A DNA stretch of 47,602 nt from an uncultured Pseudomonadales bacterium. Its GTDB lineage: Bacteria > Pseudomonadota > Gammaproteobacteria > Pseudomonadales > Porticoccaceae. The DNA is taken from NCBI GenBank assembly GCA_905478975.1, contig CAJQKW010000119.1, forward strand, positions 1 through 47,602. The letters run 5' to 3'. Below are positions 2,189 to 38,176 of this stretch, in pieces; positions within the stretch are counted from its first letter, which is position 1, and each line of letters begins with the position of its first letter. The position numbers and the translations under genes were made by a program. The notes beneath the pieces were generated by a model. The model was not told the DNA's origin. It was given only the letters and a program-made list of their open reading frames with translations, and searched no databases.

Positions 2189-2649
2189 TTTCTTGCCCGG
2201 GGTCTATCTGAGTTATCGCGGTACCTTTTTTGTCATCCCGAGCGTAGCCGAGGGGTCTCATGCAGTCCACTCGGAAATCCTTCGATTGCGCCTAGTACAT
2301 GAATCTAGTCGATTGTCATTTTGACATAACGCAGTGACGAGAGATCTTTGGTTCGTTTTTGGCGGCTAAGTTGAGTGCCGGGTGCGAATAGACCCTGACC
2401 ATACCCTTGCGATCGGTCCCATGGATGCCATGATTTTCAGCGTTCGCACAACTCGCTGGCGCTCAGACAAGTGCTCTCTTCTTCTGAAAATAATGGCACC
2501 CATAAGCGGGCCCTGATTGATCGCAAGGGTATGCCCAGGGTCTATCTGGATTATTGCGGTACAGACGTGAAACTGGTTCTGCTATCGCTACACCTTACTG
2601 ATCATCCCGAGCGCAGCCGAGGGACCTCCCAGCAGGATTGCTCCGACGC
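2189..2649. repeat. 461-bp repeat-rich intergenic region
   Basis: No convincing gene lies here. It holds two copies of a tract: GCCCGGGGTCTATCTG at 2195 and GCCCAGGGTCTATCTG at 2533, each continuing to a GCGGTAC end (2195-2224 and 2533-2562) and each followed shortly by a TCATCCCGAGCG repeat (about 2230-2258 and 2599-2628). Between them sits a long inverted repeat (2391-2542). After the first TCATCCCGAGCG copy, a degraded inverted partner (AATCCTTCGATTGCGCCT, 2276-2293) is visible. The gap separates two convergent genes. Confidence 0.75.
2391..2542. repeat. Long imperfect inverted repeat (about 50-nt arms)
   Basis: The left arm 2391-2440 and right arm 2484-2542 are complementary over three blocks: GACCCTG, CATACCCTTGCGATC and ATGG-TGCCAT-ATTTTCAG, with a nine-base insertion in the right arm and few mismatches. 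The 43-base loop can form a smaller hairpin of its own (CAGCG 2438-2442 with CGCTG 2454-2458). In RNA this would be a very stable rod. It looks like a non-coding palindromic element rather than a simple terminator, as it has no T tract. Confidence 0.7.
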
Positions 2650-3735
2650 CTAAATTTGCTCCAGTGGCACATAGTCAATATCAAATCCAAAACAGCGTGG
2701 CGCAACCACCTTCAACGCGTTCTCCGAGCGATAAAAATCCGGACAGCCAACGGCAAAAACCGCGACTCTTTGCCCATACCGCAGGCGTTCTGCATTAATT
2801 GGCGCAGAGGTTTCATAGTCAACAATGACAATCAGATCCGGTACGCTGGCCACTACCTTATCGCCCTGACGAGCAAGCAGGTATTCATTTTTAATGCTTA
2901 CTTTTAGTGGTTTTTCGTCGCTACTAAAGGCTTCAATAACCGCTTCGCCAATATCGTAACCACCGACAATGCGAGTTGCCTTATCAGTTATTTTTCCAGC
3001 GAAAATCAGTCGGCATTCACCGTAAATTGAATCGCTAAATAATGTCTGTAATGGTTCGAGCATATCCCTGGCGGAGCCGCGATTTTCTCGCAGGGTCTGC
3101 CCCAGCTTAATCGAGAATGAGAGGGTGCCGGGAATAATTGATCGCTTCAGTTCAAGCCCGCTCATGGGGTGCTCGGCGGTGGTGATCATGCCACCTGCAG
3201 CTATCGCAAGACTGCGGATATGGCGTTCATAGACCTCAGTTGTCTTGGTCGAGAAGGCTGTGATATTGCCATCATAATCAAGGGCAACCGCGGGAGTGGG
3301 TTTAACCCCGGCGATGGCATAACTCATCATTTGTGCTTCCGGTAGGGCTCTGCCCATACCGTCGCCGTCGATAACGGGTATTCCTCTACCTGCTGCTGCT
3401 GCAATCGGGATCAATGAATTGCCACCGCCAATTTCAAAAGAGGCAACTGCGTCGATCTGTCGACCAACCTGCTGCTCAAAGGCTCTCAATGTATTAGCTG
3501 CTTCATCAATAGAGGGGAGTAGCTCCAAGCTAACCGTGGGTGCGCCCACGGCGCCAATGGCCACTACATAGGCATCATCGCTGACATCATCTGGCTGGAT
3601 AATCTCGACAGGCCCAAACTGTTTGACCGCCTGCTCGGTAATTAATCGTGGGACATAGGGATCACCACCACCACCGGTGGCTAAAAAAACCGAACCCAGT
3701 GCGAGGTCTTCTAAGTGTTTAAGTTCGATTTTCAT
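2650..3735 (-). CDS. DUF917 / S-methyl-thiohydantoin desulfurase-domain protein
   Basis: The 361-residue protein has the hallmarks of the DUF917 (S-Me-THD) family: an N-terminal LALGSVFLATGGGGDPYV, the central SFEIGGGNSLIPI and PVIDGDGMGRALPEAQM, and a C-terminal small domain ending in a Cys-Pro motif (AVGCPDFYRSENALKVVAPRCFG). Members of this family are encoded beside HyuA-type hydantoinases and NCS1 permeases, exactly as here. The start codon overlaps the upstream HyuA stop by four bases, so the two proteins are probably made together and may form one enzyme. The Pfam name implies sulfur removal from thiohydantoins, but the substrate of this copy is not shown by the sequence. Last gene of the leftward operon. 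Confidence 0.88.
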   Translation of the reverse strand: MKIELKHLEDLALGSVFLATGGGGDPYVPRLITEQAVKQFGPVEIIQPDDVSDDAYVVAIGAVGAPTVSLELLPSIDEAANTLRAFEQQVGRQIDAVASFEIGGGNSLIPIAAAAGRGIPVIDGDGMGRALPEAQMMSYAIAGVKPTPAVALDYDGNITAFSTKTTEVYERHIRSLAIAAGGMITTAEHPMSGLELKRSIIPGTLSFSIKLGQTLRENRGSARDMLEPLQTLFSDSIYGECRLIFAGKITDKATRIVGGYDIGEAVIEAFSSDEKPLKVSIKNEYLLARQGDKVVASVPDLIVIVDYETSAPINAERLRYGQRVAVFAVGCPDFYRSENALKVVAPRCFGFDIDYVPLEQI

Positions 3736-5312
3736 ACCAAAGCCTCACTATTGTTATTGGCAGTTGCCGATATGGAGGCGGTTAATTCACCGATCACTTT
3801 GACGCGAATACAGGTGCTGGATTCATCCATATAGGGCACAGGTGTTTCTTCAATGTCCACGGTGCGCAGAGTCTTCGCGTCAGCGCCGGCGTCTATAGCC
3901 CGTTGCACAGCAATCTGGGTAACCTGTTTGATAGCCTCTTTTCGAGGTAAGGTTCTGTAGGAGACCATTTGCTCTGCTTCGCCGCCAATCTGAGCAATGG
4001 CGGCGCCAATTGCGTTGGCGACACCTGCATGTTCTGGTCGGTGAATATTGGATACAGCCTGGAGTCCGTCGGTCACCAGCACTGCGCCACCGCCCACTAG
4101 GATCACGGGCATGGGTTTTCCGCCGGGCTTCATCATATCGATATTACTGTCGAGCATGGTATGTAGGGTTGCCTGGGCGTTACTAATAGTCTCTGGGGCA
4201 ATATGCGTAATCTTACTTTTGTCGCCAATATCGGCATTGCCACTGGCGACTAAAATATCGGTTGTGGTTAACGTCTCACCACCAAACACCAAGCCTTCGG
4301 TCACCAGTCGATGGCCCACTGACTGGGGGCCTATTGAGCTGCCATCGGCGGAGACAATACTGCCGCCGCCCAAGCCGATCGCCAGAATATCGGGCATACG
4401 AAAATTGGTGCGCACGCCGCCGATTTTAATAATTACATTGGATTCCCGCGGGAAGCCATTTTGCAGTACACCAATATCGGAGGTAGTGCCGCCAATATCC
4501 ACCACTACGGCGTCTTTTAATCCGGTAAGCTTATAGGCACCACGAAGGGAGTTGGTTGGACCTGATGCAAAGGTCAATGCCGGGTAGGAGCGGACAAAAT
4601 CAGCGCTCATCAATGTGCCATCATTTTGGCTGACATAGACCGGACAGTGCAGCTGGCGCTTTTTTAATGCGCCTAAAAATGAACTGACCACTTTGTCGGC
4701 AAAGGGCAGTAGTGTGGTGTTGAGGATAGCGGCATTTTCACGCTCCATTAAACCCAGGCGACCAAAGCTATGGGAGAGAGTGATCTTCGCGTTGGGGATA
4801 GCCTCAAGGATTTTACTGGCTACCTGTTTTTCCGGTTCCGCATTGATCGGTGAAAATGCTGAGGCAATAGCGATGTTTTTAACACCGCTTTTAAGCATAC
4901 TTTGAATCATGCGTTCAACTTCAGCATCGTCTATATCCGCCAGGGACCAGCCATCGTATAGATAGCCGCCGTGGAGCATATGGGTTTCGCTGTCGAGAGC
5001 GTCTTTTAGGTCTTGGGGCCAATCCAACATAGGTGGCAACCCATTACCTGATGGCAGGCCGATGCGCACGGCGGCAATCTGGGCCAGCTCGCGGCGCTCA
5101 ATAATGGCATTGGTAAACTGAGTGGTGCCGATCATTACAGTCTCTATCTCAGACTGGGCTATACCACTGTCGTCTAAAATTACATCTAGGGCATTGGTGA
5201 TGCCACTGATAACGTCGGCGGATGTCAGTGCTTTAGTTGAAGCTAAAACTTTATCGCCTTGCAGTATAACTGCATCTGTGTGGGTGCCGCCCACATCAAT
5301 TCCAATTCTCAA
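3732..5312 (-). CDS. Hydantoinase/oxoprolinase family protein (HyuA-like)
   Basis: An ASKHA-fold, ATP-using ring-opening enzyme candidate. The N-terminus MRIGIDVGGTHTDAVIL and the later AVVVDIGGTTSDIGVL are the two phosphate-binding segments; IGTTQFTNAIIERR, FASGPTNSLRGA and AIGLGGGSI are further family motifs. At 526 residues it is shorter than classical HyuA (about 680-720) and matches the compact form found with DUF917 proteins. The start is TTG at 5312, chosen because the conserved N-terminus begins there and AGAGG lies eight bases upstream, overlapping the permease stop; the gap is 11 bp. Likely acts with the downstream DUF917 protein on an imported hydantoin-like ring. No HyuB partner is present, which argues against a classical N-methylhydantoinase or 5-oxoprolinase. 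Confidence 0.88.
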   Translation of the reverse strand: MRIGIDVGGTHTDAVILQGDKVLASTKALTSADVISGITNALDVILDDSGIAQSEIETVMIGTTQFTNAIIERRELAQIAAVRIGLPSGNGLPPMLDWPQDLKDALDSETHMLHGGYLYDGWSLADIDDAEVERMIQSMLKSGVKNIAIASAFSPINAEPEKQVASKILEAIPNAKITLSHSFGRLGLMERENAAILNTTLLPFADKVVSSFLGALKKRQLHCPVYVSQNDGTLMSADFVRSYPALTFASGPTNSLRGAYKLTGLKDAVVVDIGGTTSDIGVLQNGFPRESNVIIKIGGVRTNFRMPDILAIGLGGGSIVSADGSSIGPQSVGHRLVTEGLVFGGETLTTTDILVASGNADIGDKSKITHIAPETISNAQATLHTMLDSNIDMMKPGGKPMPVILVGGGAVLVTDGLQAVSNIHRPEHAGVANAIGAAIAQIGGEAEQMVSYRTLPRKEAIKQVTQIAVQRAIDAGADAKTLRTVDIEETPVPYMDESSTCIRVKVIGELTASISATANNNSEALV

Positions 5313-5323
5313 TGTCTTCGCCT

Positions 5324-6625
5324 CTAAGAGTTCGTTTTACTGTGCTTAGTACTGTGCTTGGAACTGCGTTCATTCCAAGATAAGGCGGTATAAACAATGG
5401 CAGCAAGTATGATTGCATCGATCGCGGCTATACCTGATGGGGTGGCAATCAACCCTTTGGTACTTAATACCGCAAAAGTGGCACTGATTACCCAGGCAAT
5501 AAAGCCTTTGGGGGCTATAGCGCGATTGTCCGCTAGGGACTCAATGTTATAGGCCTGGGGGCGGATAAACAGGTAGTCGCTAATAATAATGCCGGCAACC
5601 GGAACAAAAATAATCGACAGATAAAAGATAAAGGTAATAAAGTTATCCAACAGATTGAGTAGAGCAACAAAGATGCCGAGCAAGCCGAGGCCTATAGTCA
5701 CAGCAGTGCTATTTAATTTTGGGAAGGTCGCTGTGGTGCCGAGTACGGCGCTGTAAAGATTGAGTGAGTTGAGCACCCAAGTTCCGGCAATCACAATAAT
5801 CGAGGCGCCTATACCTAAGCCCAGGTCAATCATGATATCTAAGATGTCGGCCTTTCCTGACGTAGCCCCTGCTAGACCGGCAGAGCCCATCACGACTAAT
5901 TGCACAACAACATAGGAAATAAAAGCGATATAAATCGCGCTGGACCAATGTTTAACAAAGCGGGTTATATCCGGCAGAATAATCGCGCCGATAATGATGG
6001 CACCCACTACTGCTGAGATGCCGTCACCTAATGTCAGTGTCGCGACCTTTTGGGTAGCAAGAATTTGTTCAAATGATTTTTCGCTTAGCGCAGAGTAACC
6101 GAGCAATAGGGTGACTCCAGCCAAAACTGGCACCATCAAAGTGGCCAACCAGTTGATTGCTTTAAAGCCAATCACCGTGGTTAATGTCATGCAGAAGCTG
6201 GCAATAATGGCCAGAGTTAAAGGTGCTATTCCGAGGTTAAATACATCTATCGCTAAGCGCGAGACGGCGTCGCCGAATAAATTAATATTCAAGCCGAACC
6301 AGCCGAGCAGGGAAATAGTAAAGGCGATATTTACCACACTGGCGCCTTTGTCGCCAAAGGCTACGCGCACTAGCAGGTAAGAGCTCATGCGAGTGCGGGC
6401 ACCAATCACGCCCATCACGCCACCAATAGCAAAAATAATAATCGAGCCGATAACTAGGGCCCAGAAAGCCTGTATGGGCTCGAGGGCTTGATAGACCTCA
6501 AGACCGGTAATAAACGTCGGTAACGAAAAGGCCACCATGGCCCCGACTGCTGCTACTCGGGGCCATGGTACCAATTGGTTGTCGCTTATTTTTACTGCGG
6601 AAAACTCATTGAGTTCCTGTTTCAT
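5324..6625 (-). CDS. NCS1-type permease (CodB-like cytosine/purine/hydantoin permease)
   Basis: A 433-residue inner-membrane protein with about twelve hydrophobic segments. It opens with a short cytoplasmic tail and VPWPRVAAVGAMVAFSLPTF, followed by GVMGVIGARTRMSSYLLVRVAFG, typical of the CodB branch of the NCS1 family, and LGWFGLNINLFG in the substrate region. NCS1 carriers move cytosine, purines, allantoin or hydantoins with H+ or Na+. It sits between the TonB receptor (60 bp upstream) and the HyuA-like gene (11 bp downstream) on the same strand, so its most likely cargo is the compound the two enzymes attack. The C-terminal tail is Ser/Lys/His rich. Confidence 0.9.
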   Translation of the reverse strand: MKQELNEFSAVKISDNQLVPWPRVAAVGAMVAFSLPTFITGLEVYQALEPIQAFWALVIGSIIIFAIGGVMGVIGARTRMSSYLLVRVAFGDKGASVVNIAFTISLLGWFGLNINLFGDAVSRLAIDVFNLGIAPLTLAIIASFCMTLTTVIGFKAINWLATLMVPVLAGVTLLLGYSALSEKSFEQILATQKVATLTLGDGISAVVGAIIIGAIILPDITRFVKHWSSAIYIAFISYVVVQLVVMGSAGLAGATSGKADILDIMIDLGLGIGASIIVIAGTWVLNSLNLYSAVLGTTATFPKLNSTAVTIGLGLLGIFVALLNLLDNFITFIFYLSIIFVPVAGIIISDYLFIRPQAYNIESLADNRAIAPKGFIAWVISATFAVLSTKGLIATPSGIAAIDAIILAAIVYTALSWNERSSKHSTKHSKTNS

Positions 6626-6685
6626 AGCTGAGGGCTATTTAACAAGAGGCTACTTCGCAGTATCAAATCACGACAGATTAAGGGT

Positions 6686-8812
6686 TTAAAAGTCATAGTT
6701 GAATTCAACACCATAGCTCGATCCGGTGTTCGGGAATCGACCCATAGAGACAACAGCGTTGCCCATGAAGACTAAATCTTCAACTTGACGTTCATCAGTC
6801 AGGTTGTCGGCAAAGACTGTCGCTGACCAGCCATCGGCCTCAACTGTGGCTCTCAGATTCAAAAATGTCTGTTTGGAGGATTCGATCTCAGGCACATCAA
6901 AGCTAAAGATTCTCGGTCCAGTGTGATTAACATCAGCACGCAGAACCAGATTCATTGCCGATGACATTTCATGCTCATATTCGGCAACCGCATTGAGGTT
7001 GTAGTCGGCGACATGGGGTAGCGAAGAGCCAATTAGATCAGCACGCTCACCAAAGGCTTCAATATCGGAATCGATCTTACCGCCATTGACCATCAACATT
7101 AGGTTGTCGCTAGCCTGAACAGCCAGTTCAAATTCAATACCCTGAGTGCTGACATCATCAACCGAGATATTTTCCAGGGTAAAGGTATTGCCATTGAAGC
7201 GCGTGACCTGTGCGTCTTCTTGGTCAATGCTGAATACCGCGACATTTAAAGTGCCAAGACCATTCATAATCGTGGTTTTAAAACCTAACTCAAGGCTGTC
7301 AGAGAGCTCCTTGTTAAAGGTGCGGCTGATATCCGGATGCGGCTCATTGAAACCACCGCTGCGGAAGCCTCGGGAAAAGCCTGCATAGATCAGAGTGTCG
7401 GCATCCATTTGATAGGCTAGAGACAGTTTTGGCTGCACTTCAGAGAAAGTCTTCTCTTCATAAGTGCTTTCGATAAAGCGTGAGTCAAAAGACTCTCGTT
7501 CATCTCTGTCATAACGGATTGCAGCGGTCACTTCGAGCTGCTCGGTGAGATCATAGTTAAGCTGAGTTGATAGAGCCCATGCATCACTGCTGTTGTCATC
7601 TAAAATACTAAATACGACTGTACTTGGGTCAAAGTCAGACCGGGTCATGGCCTGATTGCCTACTGCGTCGTCGTAGTTGTGGTACTCACTATCACGGGTG
7701 CGATCCTGCATAAAGGCGGCCACAGCCCAGCGCAAACGAGTATCATCGTTAGACTTTAGACGCGCTTCGAAGGTGGTTGATTCAACCTTCAAAATATTTT
7801 CCTGAGCACCAGCATAATGGAAACCATCAAAATCACTTGGCTGACTAGAGTAGTCGGCATCGGAAAAACCGACCTGATCAGATTCACTGTAACCGGTCAC
7901 TAACTCAAGCGTTGAAGAGGCGAAGTCATGGGAGAATCTAGCACTGAATTCAGTGAGATCACGCTTATCCAGCCCCGGCACGTTGTGTTCAGTAGTCAGT
8001 GAGAAATCTTCAAAGCTAGCTGCATCAACAGCTTGATAGTAACCAATACCCGTTTCTGTATTGGTGACTCGGGCATTTAAATCTAACCTTGAGGTATCAG
8101 ACAGTTCGATATTTAGCGTACCAAATACTGAGCTCTCTTCATGGAAGTCAGCTTTTTCGTTGAGGAAGGTATTGCTAATCTGTCCATCGTAATCGCGGCT
8201 GTAAGCGCCGACGCGGAAGTAAACCTGGTCTTCAACCAGTGCGCCAGAGGCTACGCCAGAGACGCGCTTATCGCTGCCGCTGGCAAAAGAAGTGCTGACT
8301 CGCGCTTCAAAATCATTGGTTGGCTTCTTGGTGGTAATATTGACTGCACCACCAATAGCGCCGCGACCGTAGAGGGCGCCCTGAGCACCGCGCAGCACTT
8401 CGATTCGTTCGATATCAAATAGCTCTTGGTTCATAAATTCGAGATCGGAAGCGGTAATGCCGTCGACAACGAAGGCGATTGGGGCGTCACCCACCTGAGG
8501 TGTGATCAGTCCACGAATCTGGATGCGCGCTAGACCAGGACGGAAATTGCTCAGCTGGCTGAGGTTCGGTGTTAGGTCGGCGACATCGCGAAAGCTCTTG
8601 ATACCGGCGCGCTCAATTTGCGCGGCATTAAAGGTGGTGATAGATTCAGGAATTTCCTGAAGGCTCTCTTCGCGGCCACGAGCCGTAACTATGACTTCGT
8701 CTATGGCCGCCTCTAGTGCTTCCTCGGCAGCGGTTAGCTGTGCAGTTGCACCAAACAGCAATGTACTAGGCACAATTAAACCGGCCAAAAATTTGTTTAA
8801 GCGGTATGACAT
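6686..8812 (-). CDS. TonB-dependent outer-membrane receptor
   Basis: A 708-residue outer-membrane receptor. A signal peptide (about residues 1-29) is followed by the TonB box DEVIVTA (38-44), a plug domain with RIQIRGLITPQVGDAP and the usual VLRGAQGALYGRGAIGGAVNI near residue 145, and a beta-barrel with repeated aromatic-rich strands ending in Phe (EFNYDF). It resembles the iron-complex OMR group used by marine bacteria for many non-iron substrates. It is first in a leftward operon with an NCS1 permease and two ring-acting enzymes, so it probably brings their substrate across the outer membrane. A GGGAG ribosome site precedes the ATG. Confidence 0.93.
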   Translation of the reverse strand: MSYRLNKFLAGLIVPSTLLFGATAQLTAAEEALEAAIDEVIVTARGREESLQEIPESITTFNAAQIERAGIKSFRDVADLTPNLSQLSNFRPGLARIQIRGLITPQVGDAPIAFVVDGITASDLEFMNQELFDIERIEVLRGAQGALYGRGAIGGAVNITTKKPTNDFEARVSTSFASGSDKRVSGVASGALVEDQVYFRVGAYSRDYDGQISNTFLNEKADFHEESSVFGTLNIELSDTSRLDLNARVTNTETGIGYYQAVDAASFEDFSLTTEHNVPGLDKRDLTEFSARFSHDFASSTLELVTGYSESDQVGFSDADYSSQPSDFDGFHYAGAQENILKVESTTFEARLKSNDDTRLRWAVAAFMQDRTRDSEYHNYDDAVGNQAMTRSDFDPSTVVFSILDDNSSDAWALSTQLNYDLTEQLEVTAAIRYDRDERESFDSRFIESTYEEKTFSEVQPKLSLAYQMDADTLIYAGFSRGFRSGGFNEPHPDISRTFNKELSDSLELGFKTTIMNGLGTLNVAVFSIDQEDAQVTRFNGNTFTLENISVDDVSTQGIEFELAVQASDNLMLMVNGGKIDSDIEAFGERADLIGSSLPHVADYNLNAVAEYEHEMSSAMNLVLRADVNHTGPRIFSFDVPEIESSKQTFLNLRATVEADGWSATVFADNLTDERQVEDLVFMGNAVVSMGRFPNTGSSYGVEFNYDF

Positions 8813-8985
8813 GGTATTTACTCCCGGGGCAGTATTTAAGTAACTATTATTATTTTTTCCTTCTGCTGTAGTATATTACTGATCACGCAAAATACTTGAT
8901 TGAAGAAATGCCTTAAACAACGCCTAAATTTGGTTGCAGGTCACTGTTACAAAATTATATTTTTTAAACCCTTCATGGCCCGCCT
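8813..8985. promoter_or_regulatory. Divergent promoter region between TonB receptor and Lrp-type regulator
   Basis: Rightward: TTGCAG (8934-8939), a 16-base spacer and TATATT (8956-8961) lie 24 bp before the regulator's ATG. Leftward: TATACT (8875-8870 on the minus strand) makes a good -10, but its -35 is poor, which fits a promoter needing activation; it lies in the near-palindrome AGTATATTACT (8870-8880). The divergent layout suggests the Lrp-type protein controls the receptor operon. Predicted by eye only. Confidence 0.4.
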
Positions 8986-9486
8986 ATGACCAGTAAAAAG
9001 AACATTAAGCTCGATGAGATCAATAAGAAGATAATAGCTATAACGCACACCCGAGCCGATATCTCTAATCAGGAGCTCAGTGAACGTGTTGGTTTGTCTA
9101 ACAGTGCCTGTTTTCAACGTACCAAAGCACTTAAAGAAGCGGGGTACCTTATTACGTTTCATTCTGACTTGGATATTGATCGGATCGCTAGAAATGTTTT
9201 GGCCTATGTTGAATTTACGCTTGAATCAAATAGCCCCAGTGCCAGAAAGACCTTTGAAAATGCAATTGAGGTGATTCCGGAATTTATGGATTGTTTGCGG
9301 GTTACTGGGGATGTGGATTACATCTGCTTTACTTGCTGTTCCGATACCTCTGCACTCAATGAGCTCTGCGATCTGATTAGTGGTAATCCTGATTTGGGTG
9401 TGCAAAAGGTCAAGGTGCGGATTATATTGGAGCGCGCCAAATGGTATTTGGGTTTTCCATTGGACAAGCTTGAGTGGTTGGATTGA
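8986..9486 (+). CDS. Lrp/AsnC family transcriptional regulator
   Basis: A 166-residue regulator with an N-terminal winged helix-turn-helix (about residues 8-60: LDEINKKIIAI, then ISNQELSERVGLSNSACFQRTKALKEAGYL) and a C-terminal RAM/ligand-binding domain (about 70-160) with the VTGDVDYICF segment typical of the family. Family members bind as dimers to octamers and respond to amino acids or related small molecules. It is transcribed away from the TonB-receptor operon, from a shared 173-bp region, so it is the obvious local regulator. The ligand may be the transported compound or an amino-acid product of it; this is inference. Confidence 0.92.
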   Translation: MTSKKNIKLDEINKKIIAITHTRADISNQELSERVGLSNSACFQRTKALKEAGYLITFHSDLDIDRIARNVLAYVEFTLESNSPSARKTFENAIEVIPEFMDCLRVTGDVDYICFTCCSDTSALNELCDLISGNPDLGVQKVKVRIILERAKWYLGFPLDKLEWLD

Positions 9487-9607
9487 TCTGTCATTCTAAC
9501 AGCGCATTTTGATCCACTGTCATTCCACCAGAGGCCCCACTCTGTCATCCTGACGGGGTCCCGATTCTGTTATCCCGACAGAGGCAGCGACGAGGAATCT
9601 CTAAACT
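9487..9607. repeat. Degenerate TGTCATYCY intergenic repeats
   Basis: The short gap holds four degraded heads of the TCATCC repeat family: CTGTCATTCTAACAG, CTGTCATTCCACCAG, CTGTCATCCTGACGG and CTGTTATCCCGACAG, ending in GCGACGAGGAATCTC. They look like worn copies of the repeats better preserved at 22974 and 26651. Confidence 0.55.
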
Positions 9608-10855
9608 TTAATCACAGGTCACAAAAGCCAACCCTGAATGCGCTTCCAACCGTTTCAGCAACGAATCACCCATGGCAACCGATGGTGTAAGAAAACCACC
9701 AGCACGATCTTCTTTGGCAATATCCTGAGCTAAACAGAGTCCCGCCTGACCGAGCATTTTCGCGGTGGAGCCATAACCCGGATCACGGTCACCAGTCACT
9801 TTTACAGTCAGCTTATTACCCTGATCATCACAGCCGTGAACACGCACATCAAAGTAGCCATTCAGTTGCTCCTCTGGACTCGGACCTTCGCCCGGTGCTG
9901 GAAGAACAAATTTTTCCAGCAGTGCTCTGGTGGGACTGAAGTAGAGGCCCAGTCCTAGCAGGCCAAAGGCCGCCGTTGTCATCAAGGCGCCAATGCGTCC
10001 CTTCAAGCCCTTGCCAGTAAGCATGCCTTCGCTATAGGAAAAGTCGCGGCCATAGGCCATGTCGAGCAGGGCGTTGGAGTGCAACACGACACGGGAATTA
10101 ATCGCTTCCATCACGAAGGGTGCAATCCAGCAATTAAAGTCTGGATCAAATTGTGGCCCGGAGACACTCTTGGCACGAATGCTGTACTGATGATCACTGC
10201 CGCATAAGAGGTAGGGATTGCCCATTTTCTTGCGCATTTTAGGATCGGCTTTGGCCGCTTTAAGGGCTTCGATCATACTCGCGATAGTGCCGCCAGAAGC
10301 GCCACCTTTCATGGCTTTTACTCGCAGCTTAGCGTGGGGCAGTGGATGACCAAACTGCTCTTGGGCGCGTTGCTGCATGGCAAAGACGCCCATATCCGAG
10401 GGGATAGAGTCAAAGCCGCAGCAGTTGACTATGCGTGCGCCGCTGGCCTCTGCGGCCTGGTTATATTTCTCTTTCATCTGCCCGATCCAATGGGCTTCGC
10501 CGGTCAGGTCAGTGTAGTCAGTGCCGGTTTCTGCGCAGGTTTTGATCAGCAGCTCGCCGTACAGTGCATAGGGTCCAACAGTGGAAATAACCACTCGGGT
10601 TTGGCTGCACAGTGCTTGCAGTGATGCTTCATCGTGAGAGTCGGCGATCAACACTGGCAGTTCGCTGGCAACAGTGCCGAGAGAATTTTTTAATATTGTC
10701 AGTTTGGATTCTGAGCGCGAGGCGATAGCCCAGGAAATATCGCCATTGACGCCAATGGTCTCGACTAAATAGTTACTGAGGATTTGGCCGACAAAACTGG
10801 TGGCGCCGAAAACGATCAGATCATAGGGTTTACTGGATACTTCGTTAGTAGACAT
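9608..10855 (-). CDS. Saccharopine dehydrogenase-like / trans-acting enoyl reductase family protein
   Basis: A 415-residue oxidoreductase. The N-terminus YDLIVFGATSFVGQILSNYL is a Rossmann dinucleotide-binding motif (GATxFxG), followed by ASRSESKL and the VVISTVGPYALYGELLIKTCAETGTDYTDLTGE stretch (given here as landmarks) that is characteristic of the saccharopine dehydrogenase NADP-binding family, including mycobacterial trans-acting enoyl reductases. In other organisms these reduce lipid-linked enoyl chains or have no known substrate; true lysine-pathway activity is unlikely. It is divergent from the GST gene, sharing a 58-bp gap. Annotate as a reductase of unknown substrate. Confidence 0.82.
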   Translation of the reverse strand: MSTNEVSSKPYDLIVFGATSFVGQILSNYLVETIGVNGDISWAIASRSESKLTILKNSLGTVASELPVLIADSHDEASLQALCSQTRVVISTVGPYALYGELLIKTCAETGTDYTDLTGEAHWIGQMKEKYNQAAEASGARIVNCCGFDSIPSDMGVFAMQQRAQEQFGHPLPHAKLRVKAMKGGASGGTIASMIEALKAAKADPKMRKKMGNPYLLCGSDHQYSIRAKSVSGPQFDPDFNCWIAPFVMEAINSRVVLHSNALLDMAYGRDFSYSEGMLTGKGLKGRIGALMTTAAFGLLGLGLYFSPTRALLEKFVLPAPGEGPSPEEQLNGYFDVRVHGCDDQGNKLTVKVTGDRDPGYGSTAKMLGQAGLCLAQDIAKEDRAGGFLTPSVAMGDSLLKRLEAHSGLAFVTCD

Positions 10856-10913
10856 AGGTTATTATTCTTATAGTTGCATACGGTTATTTTTATTGTTAAT
10901 TCGCGGAGCGGTT

Positions 10914-11555
10914 GTGCCCACAAACATACCCATTTTATATTCTTTTCGTCGCTGCCCCTATGCAATGCGGGCGCGAATGACTCTGTTATACGCGAGTATA
11001 AACCTAGAGCTGCGGGAAGTCCTGCTGAAAGCCAAACCGGAGAAAATGCTGGCTATTTCAGCTAAGGGTACAGTGCCAGTATTAGAGTTGCCGGATGCGA
11101 CGGTCCTCGATGAGAGCTATGACATTGCTCACTGGGCGCTGAATGCAAGTGATCCCGAGCAGTGGTGGAGTGCCGATCTCGCCCCGGCAATTGACGATTT
11201 AGTGGCCCGCAATGACGGCCAGTTTAAGGCCGATCTAGATCAGTATAAATACTGGGAGCGCTTTCCCGCGGAGTCACAGGAGCAGTATCGCGCTCGCGGT
11301 GAGCAATTTCTCGCTGAACTTGAAGTACTGTTAACCCGACAACCCTACCTGCTGGCAGAGCGAATAACCCTGGCGGACATTGCCCTGTTTCCCTTTATTC
11401 GTCAGTTCGCCTTTGTTGATAAAGACTGGTTTGATCAGTCGCCCTACCCAAAGCTGCGCGCTTGGCTGGAACAGTTACTGATATCTGAACTGTTTTTGTC
11501 AGCCATGAAAAAATCCCCACCCTGGCAGGATGGGGACTCTCCGATTTCTCTTTAG
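10914..11555 (+). CDS. Glutathione S-transferase family protein
   Basis: A 213-residue GST-fold protein. The thioredoxin-like N-terminal domain has LYSFRRCPYAMRARM with a candidate catalytic Cys14 in CPYA, KGTVPVL with the cis-proline, and LDESYDI in place of the usual glutathione-contacting ESxAI. The C-terminal helical domain follows, with LAERITLADIALFPFIRQF. This points to the Cys-type (omega/beta-like) GSTs that reduce or deglutathionylate rather than conjugate. I chose GTG at 10914 because GGAG (10905-10908) lies five bases upstream and the family N-terminus begins there; an upstream in-frame TTG at 10893 lacks a ribosome site. Confidence 0.88.
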   Translation: MPTNIPILYSFRRCPYAMRARMTLLYASINLELREVLLKAKPEKMLAISAKGTVPVLELPDATVLDESYDIAHWALNASDPEQWWSADLAPAIDDLVARNDGQFKADLDQYKYWERFPAESQEQYRARGEQFLAELEVLLTRQPYLLAERITLADIALFPFIRQFAFVDKDWFDQSPYPKLRAWLEQLLISELFLSAMKKSPPWQDGDSPISL

Positions 11556-11602
11556 GAGTGGCACTCTATGTCGCGCTCTCTCACGACTAATCCCTCGCAA
11601 TA

Positions 11603-14389
11603 CTAATCCCAGTCAATAACCACTTTTACCCGTGCTTCATCCGGTGCTTCTGAGGATGGCTCACCCAGTTTAAAGCGCAAACCGACTTCCGGAATATTGG
11701 CACCGCCAAAGGGCAGTTTTGGATTCTGATAGCGGTTTGGTCGCGCATCGGAAAACTCACTGACGGGCGGGTAGGCTTCACTGCTCCGTTCAAGCACGCG
11801 ATCACCATCAATGGAGTACACCGAGGTGCCCTTGGCAAAGCTCTCTAGGGCAAAGGGGGCATCACCGGAATGACGATTGCGCAGGGCGCGATCATAGAGC
11901 CGATACTCCGTTTTGCCACCGCGAATACGCAGGTCAAACAGAGAAGTAACGCCTTTATATTTCAGGCGGTCGGCACCGGGCAATAGGCTATTGATCAATG
12001 TGTAGCCATACATTAACTGACGGCCCTCCCAGTTCAATGATTCCACCGCGGGCAGGCCATTAACCAGAGACTCATAGCAGCGCTTTCGATCCGTGACACT
12101 GACATCGCTGGAGTAGAAAGCCGAGCGGCGCTGATGGCACATCACATCGACATAGCTCTGCTGCAGCCAGGGCTGTGCGCTGTCATCGAATTGGTAAGAG
12201 GTCCAGCCCTGGTCGTCGACAAAATACTGTTCAGGCACGCTAGGCAGATTAAATTCCTGGGGGTTGGCATCCACCAGTAATAAGAAACCATTGCCGGGTC
12301 CGAACTGGGCTGGTTCATTTTGGCTCCAGAGATACTCGCCGTTGTAATACCAGGCCAAAACCCCGGGGCGGTAGTTGGCACTAAAAGCCTTCATCTCACC
12401 GTCAGTATCCTTAAAAAAGGAAAAGCCGGGTTTAGAGAGTCCCGCATCGTAATTTTTTACCCGGTCAAAACGGGCGTAGGGATCGCGATATTCCAGTAGA
12501 TAGTAGTGGGGCACGGCAATGCGATGCTCTCCGCCACTGAGGGTAAAGCCATCGCTGCTCCAGCCCTTTAAGACGCCAGATTCAAAATCTTCGTAATAAT
12601 CCACCCCGTCGAGACGGATATTGTCGATCAGGGCGCCATCTTCCACGGCGGCACCATCGGCGAAGTAGTGCAGGCGAAGCGATACCTGCTTGCCGCGATA
12701 GGCTTCAAGATCAAATTCTGCGGTGATCCACTGGGCCTCTTCGCAGGCGTCCTCTATGGTTTCACCCACTCGATCTTCAGCCAGCACTTTGCTCGCCGAG
12801 GGGTCACAGCCGGCGGCGATCTCGACTTTGCCATCACCGTCCATATCACCGGAACGGCCGCTAAATCCAGGTAGGGAGCCCTCGCCCTCATGGCCCTTTT
12901 TCGAGGGCATGGTGCTGTTTGTATCCGCGGCATTGTCTTTGTCGGTGGGTAGCAGGCGCTGATAGTCATCGCCATCGGTAGAGGCTTCTATGTAGAGGTA
13001 GTCCCAATCCGATTCGATTTTAAACCAGGTATCGAAACTCAGTATCAACGGTTGCTCGGCAGCGACTTCACGGAGATCAACGCTGCGGCTAAGGAAGTGA
13101 TGCAGATCGTTGCCCTGGCCGGTGTAGGCGGCATAGTTACCCTGATCTTTGCCAAGGGGCCCAAGGTGCAGTTGACGTATTTTTGGCGGCAGAATAATCA
13201 TCGTTGCGTCGCAGACGCCACGACTGTTTTCAGTGCCGGCCTTATTCGACCAGTCATTCATGGTTTTTAAGTACATGGAGCTGCGCTTGTCGCCGCCAAA
13301 AGCCGGTGGGCGAACAATGCAGGGATTCATCCAGCCCAGTACCATTCGCGACCAGGCGCTGAGTTCTTGTGGCTCTGGAGAGGCGGTTGAGGACATGGCC
13401 TCCCAAGAGGCGGTGGAATTATTGGTTGAGCGAGCATAGATATCGGGCAGCCCTAAGGAGTGGCCAAACTCGTGGATAAAGGTCGACACCTCGGTGTACT
13501 CGGACTGCATATTGTAGTCGTAGAGCCACAGGCCCTCTTCAATTTCATGTCCGCCGCGACCATTGACCATACCCTCGAGAACCGGGCCTTTGCCGAGGCC
13601 GCGATTGAGTGAGCTGCGGTGGGGCCAGATGCGGTCGGCACAGTCCTGTTCATCTGCTGGCAGGCTGTCAAAGACGTTGCTTTCGGCATTGACGGTAAAT
13701 TTCTCATTGAGCTTGTAGAGACCCTGGCAAGAAGACTGGGCTTTGCCAGCATAGACAATCACTAGGTGATCCAAATAACCATCGGCCTCGGCGCGATTGC
13801 CATCGCCATCAAAGTCTTCAGGATCCCAAATATCGTAATCCTTCCAGGGAAACTTGGGGTTATCTCTATGGGCGGCCTGCAGTGCTTCAATGACCAGTTC
13901 CTCTGTATGGTCATCGTTGCGCCAGCTGCCATCGGCATTCTGTAGAGGGCGACCATAATAGGCCAGGGGCTTGCTCACCTTGGCGATGGGCATCACCTTG
14001 CCGGTGACGTTATAGAGGCCTTTTGATTGGTGGCGGTAGTAGTGGGACAGAGTGCCGGGCTTAGGGCGCTTAACACTGCCGCCAAACAATAGCTTTTGCA
14101 GATAGTTACGGTTTTTATTATTCTGCTTTTTGTCTCCGGCAAAGCGGTCATAACCGAGCTCAGGAAACTCCACGGCGATCACCAATAGGCGGTGGGGGCG
14201 TTCGATACCCGCCAGCACGGGTTTGATCGAATCGGTCTTAATCTGCGGGCTGCCAAGCTGGTCAAACTGCAGGCTGGCCAGTGAATCAATCATCCGTTCC
14301 GCCTCAAGATCGACGGCTGTAACCGGGATTGCGGTACAAATAACCGCAAAGCAGAGGATCTGCGCGTAAATAGAGCGTTGAAATGCCAT
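11603..14389 (-). CDS. Secreted M6-family (immune inhibitor A-like) metalloprotease
   Basis: A 928-residue exported protein with a signal peptide (about 1-25, ending near AVDLEAE). The zinc site HEFGHSLGLPD gives ligands His306 and His310, the catalytic Glu307 and Asp316, as in peptidase family M6. Upstream are VAVEFPELGYDRFAGD and an Asp/Gly-rich putative calcium loop (DPEDFDGDGNRAEADGYLDH, split); a second such loop (DMDGDGKVEIAAG) lies near residue 515. The middle region (about 430-600) resembles a MAM/concanavalin-like sandwich. Likely degrades proteins outside the cell. No sorting tail or C-terminal translocator is visible. It is divergent from an ABC exporter gene 94 bp away, but the signal peptide suggests Sec export, so that pairing may be chance. 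Confidence 0.88.
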   Translation of the reverse strand: MAFQRSIYAQILCFAVICTAIPVTAVDLEAERMIDSLASLQFDQLGSPQIKTDSIKPVLAGIERPHRLLVIAVEFPELGYDRFAGDKKQNNKNRNYLQKLLFGGSVKRPKPGTLSHYYRHQSKGLYNVTGKVMPIAKVSKPLAYYGRPLQNADGSWRNDDHTEELVIEALQAAHRDNPKFPWKDYDIWDPEDFDGDGNRAEADGYLDHLVIVYAGKAQSSCQGLYKLNEKFTVNAESNVFDSLPADEQDCADRIWPHRSSLNRGLGKGPVLEGMVNGRGGHEIEEGLWLYDYNMQSEYTEVSTFIHEFGHSLGLPDIYARSTNNSTASWEAMSSTASPEPQELSAWSRMVLGWMNPCIVRPPAFGGDKRSSMYLKTMNDWSNKAGTENSRGVCDATMIILPPKIRQLHLGPLGKDQGNYAAYTGQGNDLHHFLSRSVDLREVAAEQPLILSFDTWFKIESDWDYLYIEASTDGDDYQRLLPTDKDNAADTNSTMPSKKGHEGEGSLPGFSGRSGDMDGDGKVEIAAGCDPSASKVLAEDRVGETIEDACEEAQWITAEFDLEAYRGKQVSLRLHYFADGAAVEDGALIDNIRLDGVDYYEDFESGVLKGWSSDGFTLSGGEHRIAVPHYYLLEYRDPYARFDRVKNYDAGLSKPGFSFFKDTDGEMKAFSANYRPGVLAWYYNGEYLWSQNEPAQFGPGNGFLLLVDANPQEFNLPSVPEQYFVDDQGWTSYQFDDSAQPWLQQSYVDVMCHQRRSAFYSSDVSVTDRKRCYESLVNGLPAVESLNWEGRQLMYGYTLINSLLPGADRLKYKGVTSLFDLRIRGGKTEYRLYDRALRNRHSGDAPFALESFAKGTSVYSIDGDRVLERSSEAYPPVSEFSDARPNRYQNPKLPFGGANIPEVGLRFKLGEPSSEAPDEARVKVVIDWD

Positions 14390-22973: not shown

Positions 22974-23092
22974 GTCATCCCGACCGCAGTGGAGGGATCT
23001 CCCACAGCTGGCAGCAGACTAATAATGTTGTAAGGTTTTTTCGAGGCAGATGCCAGATGCGGGAGATCCTTCGGCTGCGCTCAGGATGACAA
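22974..23092. repeat. Paired inverted intergenic repeat (GTCATCCCGA family)
   Basis: A forward copy GTCATCCCGACCGCAGTGGA (22974-22993, continuing GGGATCTCCCA) and an inverted copy (CGGGAGATCCTTCGGCTGCG at 23060-23079, continuing CTCAGGATGAC to 23090) face each other across about 55 bases. The arms match at most positions. This is the best-preserved pair of the family in the window, and sits between two convergent genes. Confidence 0.75.
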
Positions 23093-26607: not shown

Positions 26608-26860
26608 CCTGTCATCCCAGCCGTCACACTGTTACCCCGACAGCCACACTGTCATCCCGACCGCAGTGGAGGGACCTCAGCCAGTTGGCAGGAGATCCTT
26701 CGACTTCGCTCAGGACGAAAAGCCTTTATAGAAAGAGGCCCTTCGACTCCGCTCAGGGTCACAAGCCTTTAATAGAAACAGATCCTTCGACTTCGCTCAG
26801 GACGAAAAGCCTTTATAGAAAGAGGCCCTTCGACTCCGCTCAGGGTCACAAGCCTTTAGG
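26608..26860. repeat. Tandem and inverted intergenic repeat cluster
   Basis: Two or three degraded heads (TGTCATCCCAGCCG, TGTTACCCCGACAG) precede a good forward copy GTCATCCCGACCGCAGTGGA (26651-26670, continuing to 26678) and an inverted copy GAGATCCTTCGACTTCGCTC (26692-26711). The inverted copy is then amplified: an 87-bp unit (26694-26780) is followed by a near-identical second copy (26781-26859). Each unit is itself two related 43/44-bp halves beginning GATCCTTCGACTTCGCTCAG and GGCCCTTCGACTCCGCTCAG. The gap between the dioxygenase and DoxX genes holds nothing else. Confidence 0.85.
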
Positions 26861-34371: not shown

Positions 34372-34908
34372 ATGATTAATTTCCAGCTGAATAATAGTCC
34401 TGTCGAAGTCGATATTGATCCGGATACCCCATTGTTATGGGTGGTGCGGGATCACTTTAAGCTCAAGGGCAGTAAATTTGGCTGTGGTATGGGTCTCTGC
34501 GGAGCCTGCACCATGCACCTCAATGGCGAGGCCGTGCGTACCTGCACTCTGCCTATTTCGGCGGTTCAAGGCGCTGTGATTACCAGTATCGAAGGTCTGG
34601 GTACGCCGGATAATTTGCATCCATTGCAACAGGCCTGGGTTGAGCACAGCGTTCCCCAGTGCGGCTATTGCCAGTCTGGCCAGTTGATGTCTGCCAGTGC
34701 GCTGTTAGCGAAAAACCCTAATCCCTCCGACGACGATATAGTGACGGCCATGAATGGCAATATCTGTCGCTGCGGCACCTACAGCAAAATTAAATCGGCT
34801 ATTAAGTCGGTCAGTAAGTCTGGCGCCGCGGCGATGCGTAACAAGGAGAGCATGGTTGAGACTTTTGATCCCGCAACTGCGAATCTCAAAAGGGAGGCAA
34901 ACTCATGA
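34372..34908 (+). CDS. Molybdenum hydroxylase, 2Fe-2S subunit
   Basis: A 178-residue iron-sulfur subunit of an aldehyde/isoquinoline-oxidoreductase type enzyme. It has the plant-ferredoxin cluster CGMGLCGAC with Cys38, Cys43, Cys46 and Cys58, and the second cluster with Cys97 and Cys100 (CGYCQSGQ) and Cys132 and Cys134 (NICRCGTY). This two-cluster layout passes electrons from the molybdenum cofactor to an acceptor. After residue 140 there is a 35-residue polar extension not needed for the clusters. The stop overlaps the next gene's start by four bases. Confidence 0.93.
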   Translation: MINFQLNNSPVEVDIDPDTPLLWVVRDHFKLKGSKFGCGMGLCGACTMHLNGEAVRTCTLPISAVQGAVITSIEGLGTPDNLHPLQQAWVEHSVPQCGYCQSGQLMSASALLAKNPNPSDDDIVTAMNGNICRCGTYSKIKSAIKSVSKSGAAAMRNKESMVETFDPATANLKREANS

Positions 34909-37109: not shown

Positions 37110-37138
37110 TTGACTGGACTGCTGCTAGTCTTAATGCC

Positions 37139-38176
37139 ATGAATAATTATTTCACAGAGCTTTTAAACCATTGGCATCCACTGCGCGACGCGCATCTCTG
37201 GGTGCTGGCGACGGTGTATAAAACCGTTGGACCCTGTTATCGCAGAGCCGGTGCGATGATGCTGTTTAACGATCTCGGGCAGCAGTTTGGTCTGCTTAGC
37301 GGTGGCTGTCTGGAGGCGGATATTCAGCGGCATGCGGCCCGTGTTATGCATAGCAAGCGTTCGCTTACGGTCAGTTACGATGGCAGCGATGAAGACGATA
37401 TTACCTTTCAATTAGGTATTGGCTGCGGCGGCACCGTGCATATTGTGCTGCAACCGATCTTGCCTGAGCACCACTATCTTCATTTAAATGAGGTTCACGA
37501 GCAGCTAAGTAACGGCGGCAAGGGGCTTTATTCTCAGCTTATTGCCGCTGATGGAGAGGTTGAAACTCGCTGGGAAATTTCTCAGCTTTCTAATGACCGC
37601 TCTACTCAAAGGTCTTCCCCAGAATTAATTGAAAAAGATAATCAGACCTGGTTGCTAACTAACCTAAGCCCACCGCCCCACCTGTTGGTGGTTGGCGCCG
37701 GAGTCGATGCTCAGCCCGTTGTGCAGATGGCCAAGACTTTAGGTTGGACGGTGACGCTGTGGGATTCGCGGCCAGCCAATGGGCGTCGTGAGCACTTTAT
37801 GTCTGCGGATCAGATTCTGCGCCAGCCGTTGGATCTATTAATGCAGCATAAATCATCAGCACAGTGGAACGCTGCTGTGGTGATGTCCCACAATTTACAG
37901 ATGGATGGCGATGCAATCAGAGCCTTGCAGGGCAGTGCCATAGAATATTTGGCGCTGTTGGGGCCGGTTGCTCGCAAGCAGCAGGTGTTGGCCCTGGCGC
38001 GGTTGGATGAGCGGAGTCTGACTGTTCCTATTGCCGGGCCAGCGGGATTAAATCTCGGCGCCGAGTTGCCTGAGGGCATAGCCCTGTCCATTTTGGCCGA
38101 GTGCCATGCTGTATTGCAGGGGGCTACAGGTCAGTCTTTGAATGGCCTCCTGACACCAGTTTCTGAAGCCCCATAA
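37139..38176 (+). CDS. XdhC/CoxI family molybdenum-cofactor maturation protein
   Basis: A 345-residue XdhC-like protein. The N-terminal XdhC/CoxI domain has LWVLATVYKTVGPCYRRAGA and SGGCLEADIQRHAARVM; the C-terminal Rossmann domain begins near LLVVGAGVDAQPVVQMAKTL and contains VVMSHNLQMD. XdhC proteins sulfurate and insert Moco into xanthine-dehydrogenase type enzymes. It follows the catalytic subunit by 29 bp and overlaps the next gene by one base, so it belongs to the same operon. Confidence 0.9.
   Translation: MNNYFTELLNHWHPLRDAHLWVLATVYKTVGPCYRRAGAMMLFNDLGQQFGLLSGGCLEADIQRHAARVMHSKRSLTVSYDGSDEDDITFQLGIGCGGTVHIVLQPILPEHHYLHLNEVHEQLSNGGKGLYSQLIAADGEVETRWEISQLSNDRSTQRSSPELIEKDNQTWLLTNLSPPPHLLVVGAGVDAQPVVQMAKTLGWTVTLWDSRPANGRREHFMSADQILRQPLDLLMQHKSSAQWNAAVVMSHNLQMDGDAIRALQGSAIEYLALLGPVARKQQVLALARLDERSLTVPIAGPAGLNLGAELPEGIALSILAECHAVLQGATGQSLNGLLTPVSEAP

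What the first reader, a model, noticed from the sequence alone, without database searches (positions are those of the whole stretch)
2650..9486. TonB receptor + NCS1 permease + HyuA + DUF917 operon: predicted uptake and ring-opening system
Four genes run in one direction with gaps of 60 bp, 11 bp and a 4-bp overlap, covering transport across both membranes and two enzymes of the hydantoinase/S-Me-THD type, with a divergent Lrp regulator. HyuA-DUF917-permease trios are known, but a dedicated outer-membrane TonB receptor implies a scarce or bulky substrate, perhaps a thiohydantoin-like breakdown product or a modified hydantoin or purine. No HyuB is present, so the chemistry differs from N-methylhydantoinase.
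Basis: partly seen in the sequence, partly recalled or inferred. Interest (0 to 1): 0.62.

Follow-up and report, generated by a model that had tools for sequence, protein, structure and literature searches.

The report
Receptor-fed cyclic amide ring-opening operon
A bacterium carries a compact gene set that seems to pull a small ring-shaped nitrogen compound through both of its membranes and open the ring using ATP; the closest relatives of its outer-membrane receptor also sit beside this type of ring-opening enzyme, although the actual compound is still unknown.

Summary
In detail: a TonB-dependent receptor (TBDT), NCS1 permease, short HyuA and DUF917 (S-Me-THD-like) protein form one minus-strand run with the stated spacing and a divergent Lrp. 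HyuA+DUF917 is a widespread pair: 78 of 80 DUF917 loci have HyuA on the same strand within 1.7 kb. Of 19 receptor relatives from four genome scans, the 10 best-scoring lie on the same strand within about 1.6 kb of DUF917 and/or HyuA; the 9 weaker ones have neither nearby. The window receptor lies in a supported 8-row clade, all enzyme-linked, yet the enzyme varies: HyuA+DUF917, DUF917 alone, or HyuA+HyuB. This suggests DUF917 stands in for HyuB. A thiohydantoin/ergothioneine substrate is not supported. Neighbours in single loci elsewhere (hydantoin racemase, M19 dipeptidase, oligopeptide transporter, cyclodipeptide oxidase) hint at amino-acid-derived cyclic amides; their enrichment was not tested and the substrate is unproven. 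Against a general link: over the 80 DUF917 loci TBDTs are no denser near DUF917 than in the flanks (p=0.48).

The parts
6686..8812 (-). TonB-dependent outer-membrane receptor, 708 aa, first gene of the run
   Evidence: Plug and barrel domains over cut-off; clade of enzyme-linked receptors; dN/dS 0.048 against G056
5324..6625 (-). NCS1-family permease, 433 aa; nearest to CodB but far below the CodB equivalog cut-off (157 of 326 bits)
3732..5312 (-). Short HyuA-type ATPase subunit, 526 aa, without a match to the C-terminal HyuA domain PF19278
2650..3735 (-). DUF917 / S-Me-THD-like protein, 361 aa; proposed partner of HyuA in place of HyuB
8986..9486 (+). Divergent Lrp/AsnC-type regulator, 166 aa
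   Evidence: Lrp-like gene on the opposite strand within 4 kb in 10 of 80 DUF917 loci
8950..8964 (.). Candidate operator, imperfect 15-bp palindrome CAAAATTATATTTTT between regulator and operon
   Evidence: Motif search over 13 intergenic regions, information 11.0 against 8.1-8.9 in 4 mononucleotide shuffles that were given fewer restarts (12 against 40); weak, prediction only

Best explanation
The locus is a self-contained scavenging operon for a small cyclic amide, most likely an amino-acid-derived ring such as a 5-substituted hydantoin or a cyclic dipeptide. The TBDT takes the compound across the outer membrane with TonB energy, and the NCS1 symporter takes it across the inner membrane. The short HyuA uses ATP to phosphorylate the amide carbonyl, and DUF917 completes ring opening in the role that HyuB plays in 5-oxoprolinase, N-methylhydantoinase and caprolactamase. 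A local Lrp-type regulator controls the set, probably by sensing an amino acid product. Shown by sequence: the genes, the pairing, the receptor linkage, the ATPase fold (predicted), and the exchange of enzyme type behind one receptor clade. Inferred: the order of steps, DUF917's catalytic role, the direction of transport, the regulator's ligand and the substrate class.
For: Gene set and domains. The HyuA model matches N-methylhydantoinase, acetone/acetophenone carboxylase and caprolactamase subunits (Foldseek E 7e-30 to 5e-23); the glycine-rich motifs GIDVGGT and DIGGTT, which I recall as phosphate-binding, lie in invariant or nearly invariant columns over 46 rows. HyuA is within 1.7 kb on the same strand in 78 of 80 DUF917 loci. 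Receptor: the 10 best of 19 relatives are linked to DUF917 and/or HyuA, the other 9 are not. The window row lies in supported sets of 6 and 8 rows, all linked; one of the 8 (L058) had been fetched by its DUF917. Gene order differs between window and G099 (receptor upstream or downstream), yet the set stays together. Enzyme exchange within the 8-row set: HyuA+DUF917 (window, L008, L009, L058, L148), DUF917 without HyuA in the stretch (L125, L126), full-length HyuA+HyuB (L127). A second 4-row set (L128, L129, L146, L147) also has HyuA+DUF917. Single loci elsewhere show hydantoin racemase, M19 dipeptidase, oligopeptide ABC transporter and a cyclodipeptide oxidase fusion. Published: DUF917 enriched in cyclodipeptide oxidase clusters (PMC11055893, passages).
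Against: I saw no activity reported for a HyuA-DUF917 pair (listings only: 25 of 161 papers, 10 of 10; passages of three papers). DUF917 shows no profile similarity to HyuB (hhalign probability 0.2), so 'same role' rests on gene exchange, and the HyuB case is one genome (G208). Across the 80 DUF917 loci TBDTs are not denser near DUF917 than in the flanks (12 in 741 kb against 9 in 626 kb, p=0.48), and 13 of 80 have a TBDT on the same strand within 3.5 kb. L125 and L126 have DUF917 without a HyuA in the 18 kb fetched. None of the context clues (racemase, dipeptidase, CDO) is inside this operon. In G056 HyuA and DUF917 are interrupted while receptor, permease and Lrp are intact.
Confidence: 0.6

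Rival explanations
1. The operon serves thiohydantoin or ergothioneine breakdown: DUF917 is a thiohydantoin or S-methyl-thiohydantoin desulfurase and HyuA then opens the hydantoin.
For: DUF917 belongs to the S-Me-THD domain family; the two desulfurase models are its only NCBIfam matches at E<=0.001.
Against: Scores 110 of 450 and 92 of 440 bits; the five other DUF917 proteins scanned score 73 to 116 bits. No urocanase-family gene in the own genome at E<=0.001, though the genome is about 80% complete.
Confidence: 0.07
2. A pyrimidine or purine salvage-type operon: the NCS1 permease and enzymes handle a nucleobase derivative such as dihydrouracil or an allantoin-like ring.
For: The NCS1 protein is nearest to cytosine permease CodB among solved structures (7qoa, E 1e-24).
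Against: 157 of 326 bits on the CodB model. The positions that I aligned by hand to CodB Q105, S203 and S206 (cytosine contacts as I recall them) are L, A and I here; over 29 permeases the first is L in 24, the second S in only 2, the third I, V or L in 29. No deaminase or amidohydrolase domain among the seven proteins scanned.
Confidence: 0.15
3. The receptor is a general siderophore-type receptor that lies next to the enzymes by chance or for co-regulation only.
For: Best NCBIfam model is TonB-siderophore, below its cut-off (164 of 223.5 bits); best solved relative is the pesticin receptor (4epa); 22 plug domains in this genome; density near DUF917 not raised overall.
Against: The 10 best of 19 relatives of this receptor are enzyme-linked, with changed gene order and changed enzyme type; clade supported.
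Confidence: 0.08
4. The set works as transport only, or the enzymes act on a compound made inside the cell, and receptor linkage reflects something else.
For: In G056 the receptor, permease and regulator are intact while HyuA and DUF917 are interrupted.
Against: HyuA there has nine single-base insertions, no deletion and 91.8% nucleotide identity; DUF917 has four single-base insertions and one single-base deletion inside the gene. This looks like sequencing error as much as decay. TBDTs are importers by established knowledge.
Confidence: 0.05

Closest known systems
HyuA-DUF917-permease trio (for example C. difficile CDR20291_1615-1617: probable permease, DUF917, hydantoinase)
   Same: Same two enzyme families with a permease; the three genes stand in a table of PMC12915319 (passage). 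46 of 80 DUF917 loci here have an NCS1 on the same strand within 4 kb
   Different: Here an outer-membrane receptor of its own clade and a divergent Lrp are added
ATP-dependent 5-oxoprolinase / N-methylhydantoinase / caprolactamase (HyuA+HyuB)
   Same: HyuA ATPase domains and predicted fold; two-subunit enzymes with ATP-driven lactam opening (PMC6061476, passages)
   Different: HyuA is short (no PF19278 match) and the partner is DUF917, with no profile similarity to HyuB
S-methyl thiohydantoin / thiohydantoin desulfurase
   Same: DUF917 domains
   Different: Far below both equivalog cut-offs and paired with HyuA
Cyclodipeptide-oxidase gene clusters with DUF917 (PMC11055893)
   Same: DUF917 with hydantoin racemase and peptide transporters in that survey (passages); a fused oxidase beside DUF917 seen here in Chloroflexi L046 and L056
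   Different: No cyclodipeptide oxidase domain among the operon's proteins
Own-genome HyuA-HyuB-TBDT operon, contig C46 (L099)
   Same: Ring-opening ATPase pair followed by a TBDT
   Different: Full-length HyuA with HyuB, another receptor lineage, no NCS1-like gene seen by eye in the frames

Membership tests
ATP-dependent hydantoinase/oxoprolinase (HyuA+HyuB) | HyuA ATPase domains | tested here: met
   Hydant_A_N 129.9 bits, Hydantoinase_A 96.3 bits; fold match to N-methylhydantoinase 9h03
ATP-dependent hydantoinase/oxoprolinase (HyuA+HyuB) | HyuB subunit encoded with HyuA | tested here: not met
   No HyuB among the operon's proteins; a HyuB exists on another contig beside its own HyuA
ATP-dependent hydantoinase/oxoprolinase (HyuA+HyuB) | C-terminal HyuA domain PF19278 | tested here: not met
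   No match at E<=0.001; the full-length HyuA of L148 does match
ATP-dependent hydantoinase/oxoprolinase (HyuA+HyuB) | ATP-dependent ring opening | not testable with these tools
   needs an enzyme assay
S-methyl thiohydantoin / thiohydantoin desulfurase | S-Me-THD N and C domains | tested here: met
   171.3 and 189.6 bits
S-methyl thiohydantoin / thiohydantoin desulfurase | NCBIfam equivalog cut-off | tested here: not met
   110 of 450 and 92.1 of 440 bits
S-methyl thiohydantoin / thiohydantoin desulfurase | Urocanase-type partner enzyme in the genome | tested here: inconclusive
   0 of 1 genomes matched PF01175, but the assembly is 79.86% complete
NCS1 permease | Transp_cyt_pur domain | tested here: met
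   62.6 bits against 23.5
Cytosine permease CodB | NCBIfam equivalog cut-off | tested here: not met
   156.8 of 326 bits
TonB-dependent receptor | Plug and beta-barrel domains | tested here: met
   69.3 and 127.7 bits
TonB-dependent receptor | TonB-energised import of a defined ligand | not testable with these tools
   needs binding and uptake assays
Lrp/AsnC regulator | HTH plus AsnC ligand-binding domain | tested here: met
   45.3 and 39.4 bits
Cyclodipeptide oxidase cluster | CDO genes in the cluster | tested here: not met
   None among the seven window proteins scanned; present beside DUF917 in L046 and L056

The most novel reading that the evidence does not exclude
HyuA-DUF917 is an ATP-dependent hydrolase of cyclic dipeptides (diketopiperazines) or amino-acid hydantoins in which DUF917 has replaced HyuB, and this receptor clade is the first family of outer-membrane receptors dedicated to such rings: a scavenging route for cyclic dipeptides in Proteobacteria.
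Probability: 0.2. Interest if true: 0.7.

Novelty: new variant of a known kind. Interest (0 to 1): 0.47.

Why it matters
DUF917 proteins are widespread and few have a tested function; a 2024 paper calls the family experimentally uncharacterised (PMC11055893, passages), though NCBIfam now has two desulfurase models. No TonB-dependent receptor for hydantoins or cyclic dipeptides showed in my literature listings (open-access papers only). A receptor clade that goes with these enzymes, while HyuB and DUF917 seem to trade places behind it, gives a concrete handle on what HyuA-DUF917 does and whether such rings are a scavenged nutrient. One heterologous assay of the enzyme pair with a panel of cyclic amides would settle much of it.

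Tried and rejected
Thiohydantoin/ergothioneine substrate: not supported. Cytosine permease as an equivalog: rejected. DUF917 as a distant HyuB: hhalign gave no match (the HyuB side had 4 rows only). DUF917 fold: the AlphaFold model (pLDDT 93.4) has one clear solved match, 2o3i (Z 41.1, rmsd 2.3, 339 aligned). No HyuB chain appeared among the 50 rows shown, which excludes nothing. The 34 invariant columns over 51 rows contain no His and no Cys; no catalytic residue could be assigned.

Enzyme decay in G056: HyuA there has nine 1-base insertions and no deletion; DUF917 has four 1-base insertions and one 1-base deletion. I do not count this as evidence for transport-only use.

General TBDT enrichment around DUF917: tested and not found (p=0.48). 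The near windows include 3-4 kb of core genes, and Gram-positive and archaeal loci were not removed, which weakens the test, but the result stands. L033 has a TBDT upstream of its NCS1 that was not picked up (probably my filter on N bases), so 13 of 80 may be 14 of 80.

Neighbour census: 77 ORFs near TBDT-linked pairs (25 loci that I picked as linked) and a random 110 of 207 near other pairs were scanned (the first 25 of 109 and of 108 families were shown). Near linked pairs: LuxR-type GerE 9 of 77, MalT-type TPR 8, Sulfotransfer_3 5, Asp/Glu/hydantoin racemase 3. Near other pairs: ABC permease 10 of 110, GerE 5, nitroreductase 3, oligo_HPY 3, racemase 2. The control sample of distant ORFs (120 of 278) was drawn but never scanned, so no enrichment is claimed; M19 was not among the families shown.

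CDOB (PF19585): found in 5 of 35 genomes, from 36 of the 80 loci that I chose (L043 not held); beside DUF917 in 2 of those 5, on other contigs in 3.

Literature: terms; open-access PMC only. Subscription papers on ergothioneine and DUF917 enzymes, which I recall exist, were not seen. Passages, not whole texts, were seen of PMC11055893, PMC13405746, PMC12915319, PMC13390362, PMC6061476 and PMC10040529.

Limits: in the receptor scans only some candidates per genome were scored (10 of 26 in G000; mostly 2 or 3 per genome), so weaker unlinked receptors are undercounted; the own-genome receptor of C46 (249 bits) was not listed. E-value limits differed between scans (1e-60, 1e-75, 1e-85, 1e-85). The tree holds 40 of the 46 receptor rows: the five over 1000 aa and one row of L148 were left out. 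Several rows come from loci fetched by DUF917, so they are linked by construction. It has long branches.
Full report
Observation. The window is contig C119 of a 2.24 Mb assembly, 79.86% complete. PF06032 matches once in it, and it has 22 TonB plug domains. One genome of the same order (G325) has a contig of 301,495 bases with the same gene frames as the gamma proteobacterium NOR5-3 scaffold L042, so a gammaproteobacterium is likely (inference).

The enzyme pair. In the 80 loci fetched with a DUF917 alignment, 78 have HyuA on the same strand within 1.7 kb, 46 an NCS1 permease on the same strand within 4 kb, and 10 an Lrp-like gene within 4 kb, in all 10 on the opposite strand. Of the 78 HyuA frames, 63 are 513-587 codons long from stop to stop, 4 shorter and 11 longer. 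Hosts include archaea and Gram-positive bacteria. The window HyuA model (pLDDT 88.9) matches N-methylhydantoinase, acetone and acetophenone carboxylase and caprolactamase subunits but has no match to the C-terminal HyuA domain. Published work on oxoprolinase assigns phosphorylation to subunit A and a need for subunit B in hydrolysis (PMC6061476, passages). DUF917 is paired with HyuA here as HyuB is there; the role is inferred. DUF917 has no detectable profile similarity to HyuB, and its only clear solved relative is 2o3i, deposited as a hypothetical protein.

The receptor. In 112 family genomes DUF917 was found in 4 (G000, G056, G065, G099) and receptors at E<=1e-60 in 8; those over 40% identical are G000 (the window), G056 and G099. 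In G099 the set is Lrp <> NCS1-HyuA-DUF917-TBDT: the receptor sits at the other end of the operon. Scans of 390 order, 369 class and 398 phylum genomes (overlapping sets) brought the total to 20 genomes, the window's included. Ranked by bit score, the window and the 10 best relatives (G056, G370, G235, G099, G208, G602, G1032, G1130, G157, G432; 1438 to 323 bits) have DUF917 and/or HyuA on the same strand, the nearer of the two within about 1.6 kb. The other 9 (G343, G325, G1151, G037, G036, G357, G103, G109, G107; 312 to 238 bits) show neither in the 12-20 kb fetched. With random labels so clean a split of 10 and 9 has a chance of 1 in 92,378 (by hand; it ignores kinship). In the tree of 40 receptors the window row lies in nested sets of 6 (100/99) and 8 (98/98) rows, all linked; linkage also appears in further lineages, with 5 label changes against 12.9 in shuffles.

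In the order scan for DUF917 itself, 12 of 390 genomes gave 13 places. A TBDT of some lineage lies on the same strand within about 3 kb in 6 of them (window, L128, L129, L133, L134, L135), none was seen in another 6 (L136-L141), and one (G232) was not fetched wider (L137 and L138 were judged by tblastn and by their look-alikes L042 and L031).

What varies behind the receptor clade. The window, G099, G056, L058 and G1130 have HyuA+DUF917 (G056 interrupted). G370 and G235 have a distant DUF917 (26-27%) without HyuA in the stretch. G208 has an MFS transporter, a full-length HyuA and a HyuB, with an Lrp-like gene (44%) on the same strand beyond one opposite gene. G1130 has both enzyme sets side by side, with an NCS1 and an M19 dipeptidase. 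The simplest reading is that the receptor's ligand class is constant while the opening enzyme is exchanged between HyuB and DUF917 types; the HyuB-only case is a single genome.

Substrate class. No gene in the operon fixes the substrate. Lrp/AsnC regulators usually sense amino acids (established knowledge). Elsewhere the pair is seen with hydantoin racemases (PF01177; L039, L046), M19 dipeptidases (L084, L148), oligopeptide ABC transporters (L034, L046) and a fused cyclodipeptide oxidase (L046, L056). An independent survey reports DUF917 and hydantoin racemases enriched in cyclodipeptide oxidase clusters (PMC11055893, passages). These are single loci, not a tested enrichment: the control scan was not run. 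The own genome has three M19 matches, one short and at a contig end. The permease departs from CodB at positions that I recall as cytosine contacts.

Results against. TBDTs are not denser near DUF917 than in the flanks over the 80 loci. Thus the claim is one-sided: this receptor clade goes with the enzymes, while most of the 80 DUF917 loci show no receptor nearby. The G056 enzymes are interrupted. The receptor census is incomplete, as told under Tried and rejected.

Regulation. A 15-bp imperfect palindrome sought over 13 regulator-operon intergenic regions scores above 4 shuffles that had fewer restarts (11.0 against 8.1-8.9); in the window it lies at 8950-8964. It is a prediction only.

Verdict. 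A real, conserved uptake and ring-opening gene set; a new variant (receptor-linked) of the known HyuA-DUF917-permease kind. The general mechanism is likely (0.6). The exact substrate is open.

Noticed in passing
own genome contig C46 (L099: 5310-12607): A second ring-opening operon, HyuA-HyuB-TBDT-isochorismatase family gene, preceded by CoA-transferase-like and HMG-CoA-lyase-like genes (the last two named by eye); its receptor is of another lineage.
   Followed up: partly
window 2237-2254, 2606-2623, 22979-23085, 26656-26844: Short repeat family around CCCGAGCGNAGCCGAGGG, 9 matches with up to 3 mismatches against 0.1 expected; an IS200-like Y1 transposase gene lies at 44832-45524, perhaps a REP-type element system (guess).
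   Followed up: partly
window 9488-9581: Four 15-nt repeats of the type CTGTCATTC.. spaced 25-29 nt just after the Lrp gene.
   Followed up: no
L009 (G056) 9075-11778: HyuA with nine single-base insertions and DUF917 with four insertions and one deletion in a same-genus genome, while receptor, permease and Lrp are intact; sequencing error or recent decay.
   Followed up: partly
L011, L013, L014, L016: A TPR/sulfotransferase-like gene on the opposite strand lies between the trio and a TBDT of another lineage (cluster 12; Sulfotransfer_3 in 5 of 77 neighbours); its role is unclear.
   Followed up: no
L046 and L056 (Chloroflexi): Two tandem DUF917 genes, a fused cyclodipeptide oxidase (Nitroreductase + PF19585) and a following HyuA-type gene; L046 also has a racemase and an oligopeptide ABC transporter, and L056 a HyuB-like frame 49% identical to that of L127.
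   Followed up: partly
L128, L129, L146-L148, L045, L058, L060, L084: A large MalT-like LuxR-family regulator stands near many HyuA-DUF917 pairs that lack the Lrp (Pfam for L128; GerE in 9 of 77 neighbours; others by eye).
   Followed up: partly
window 34372-38754: Two-subunit molybdenum hydroxylase genes followed by XdhC-like and MobA-like frames (the last two named by eye).
   Followed up: no
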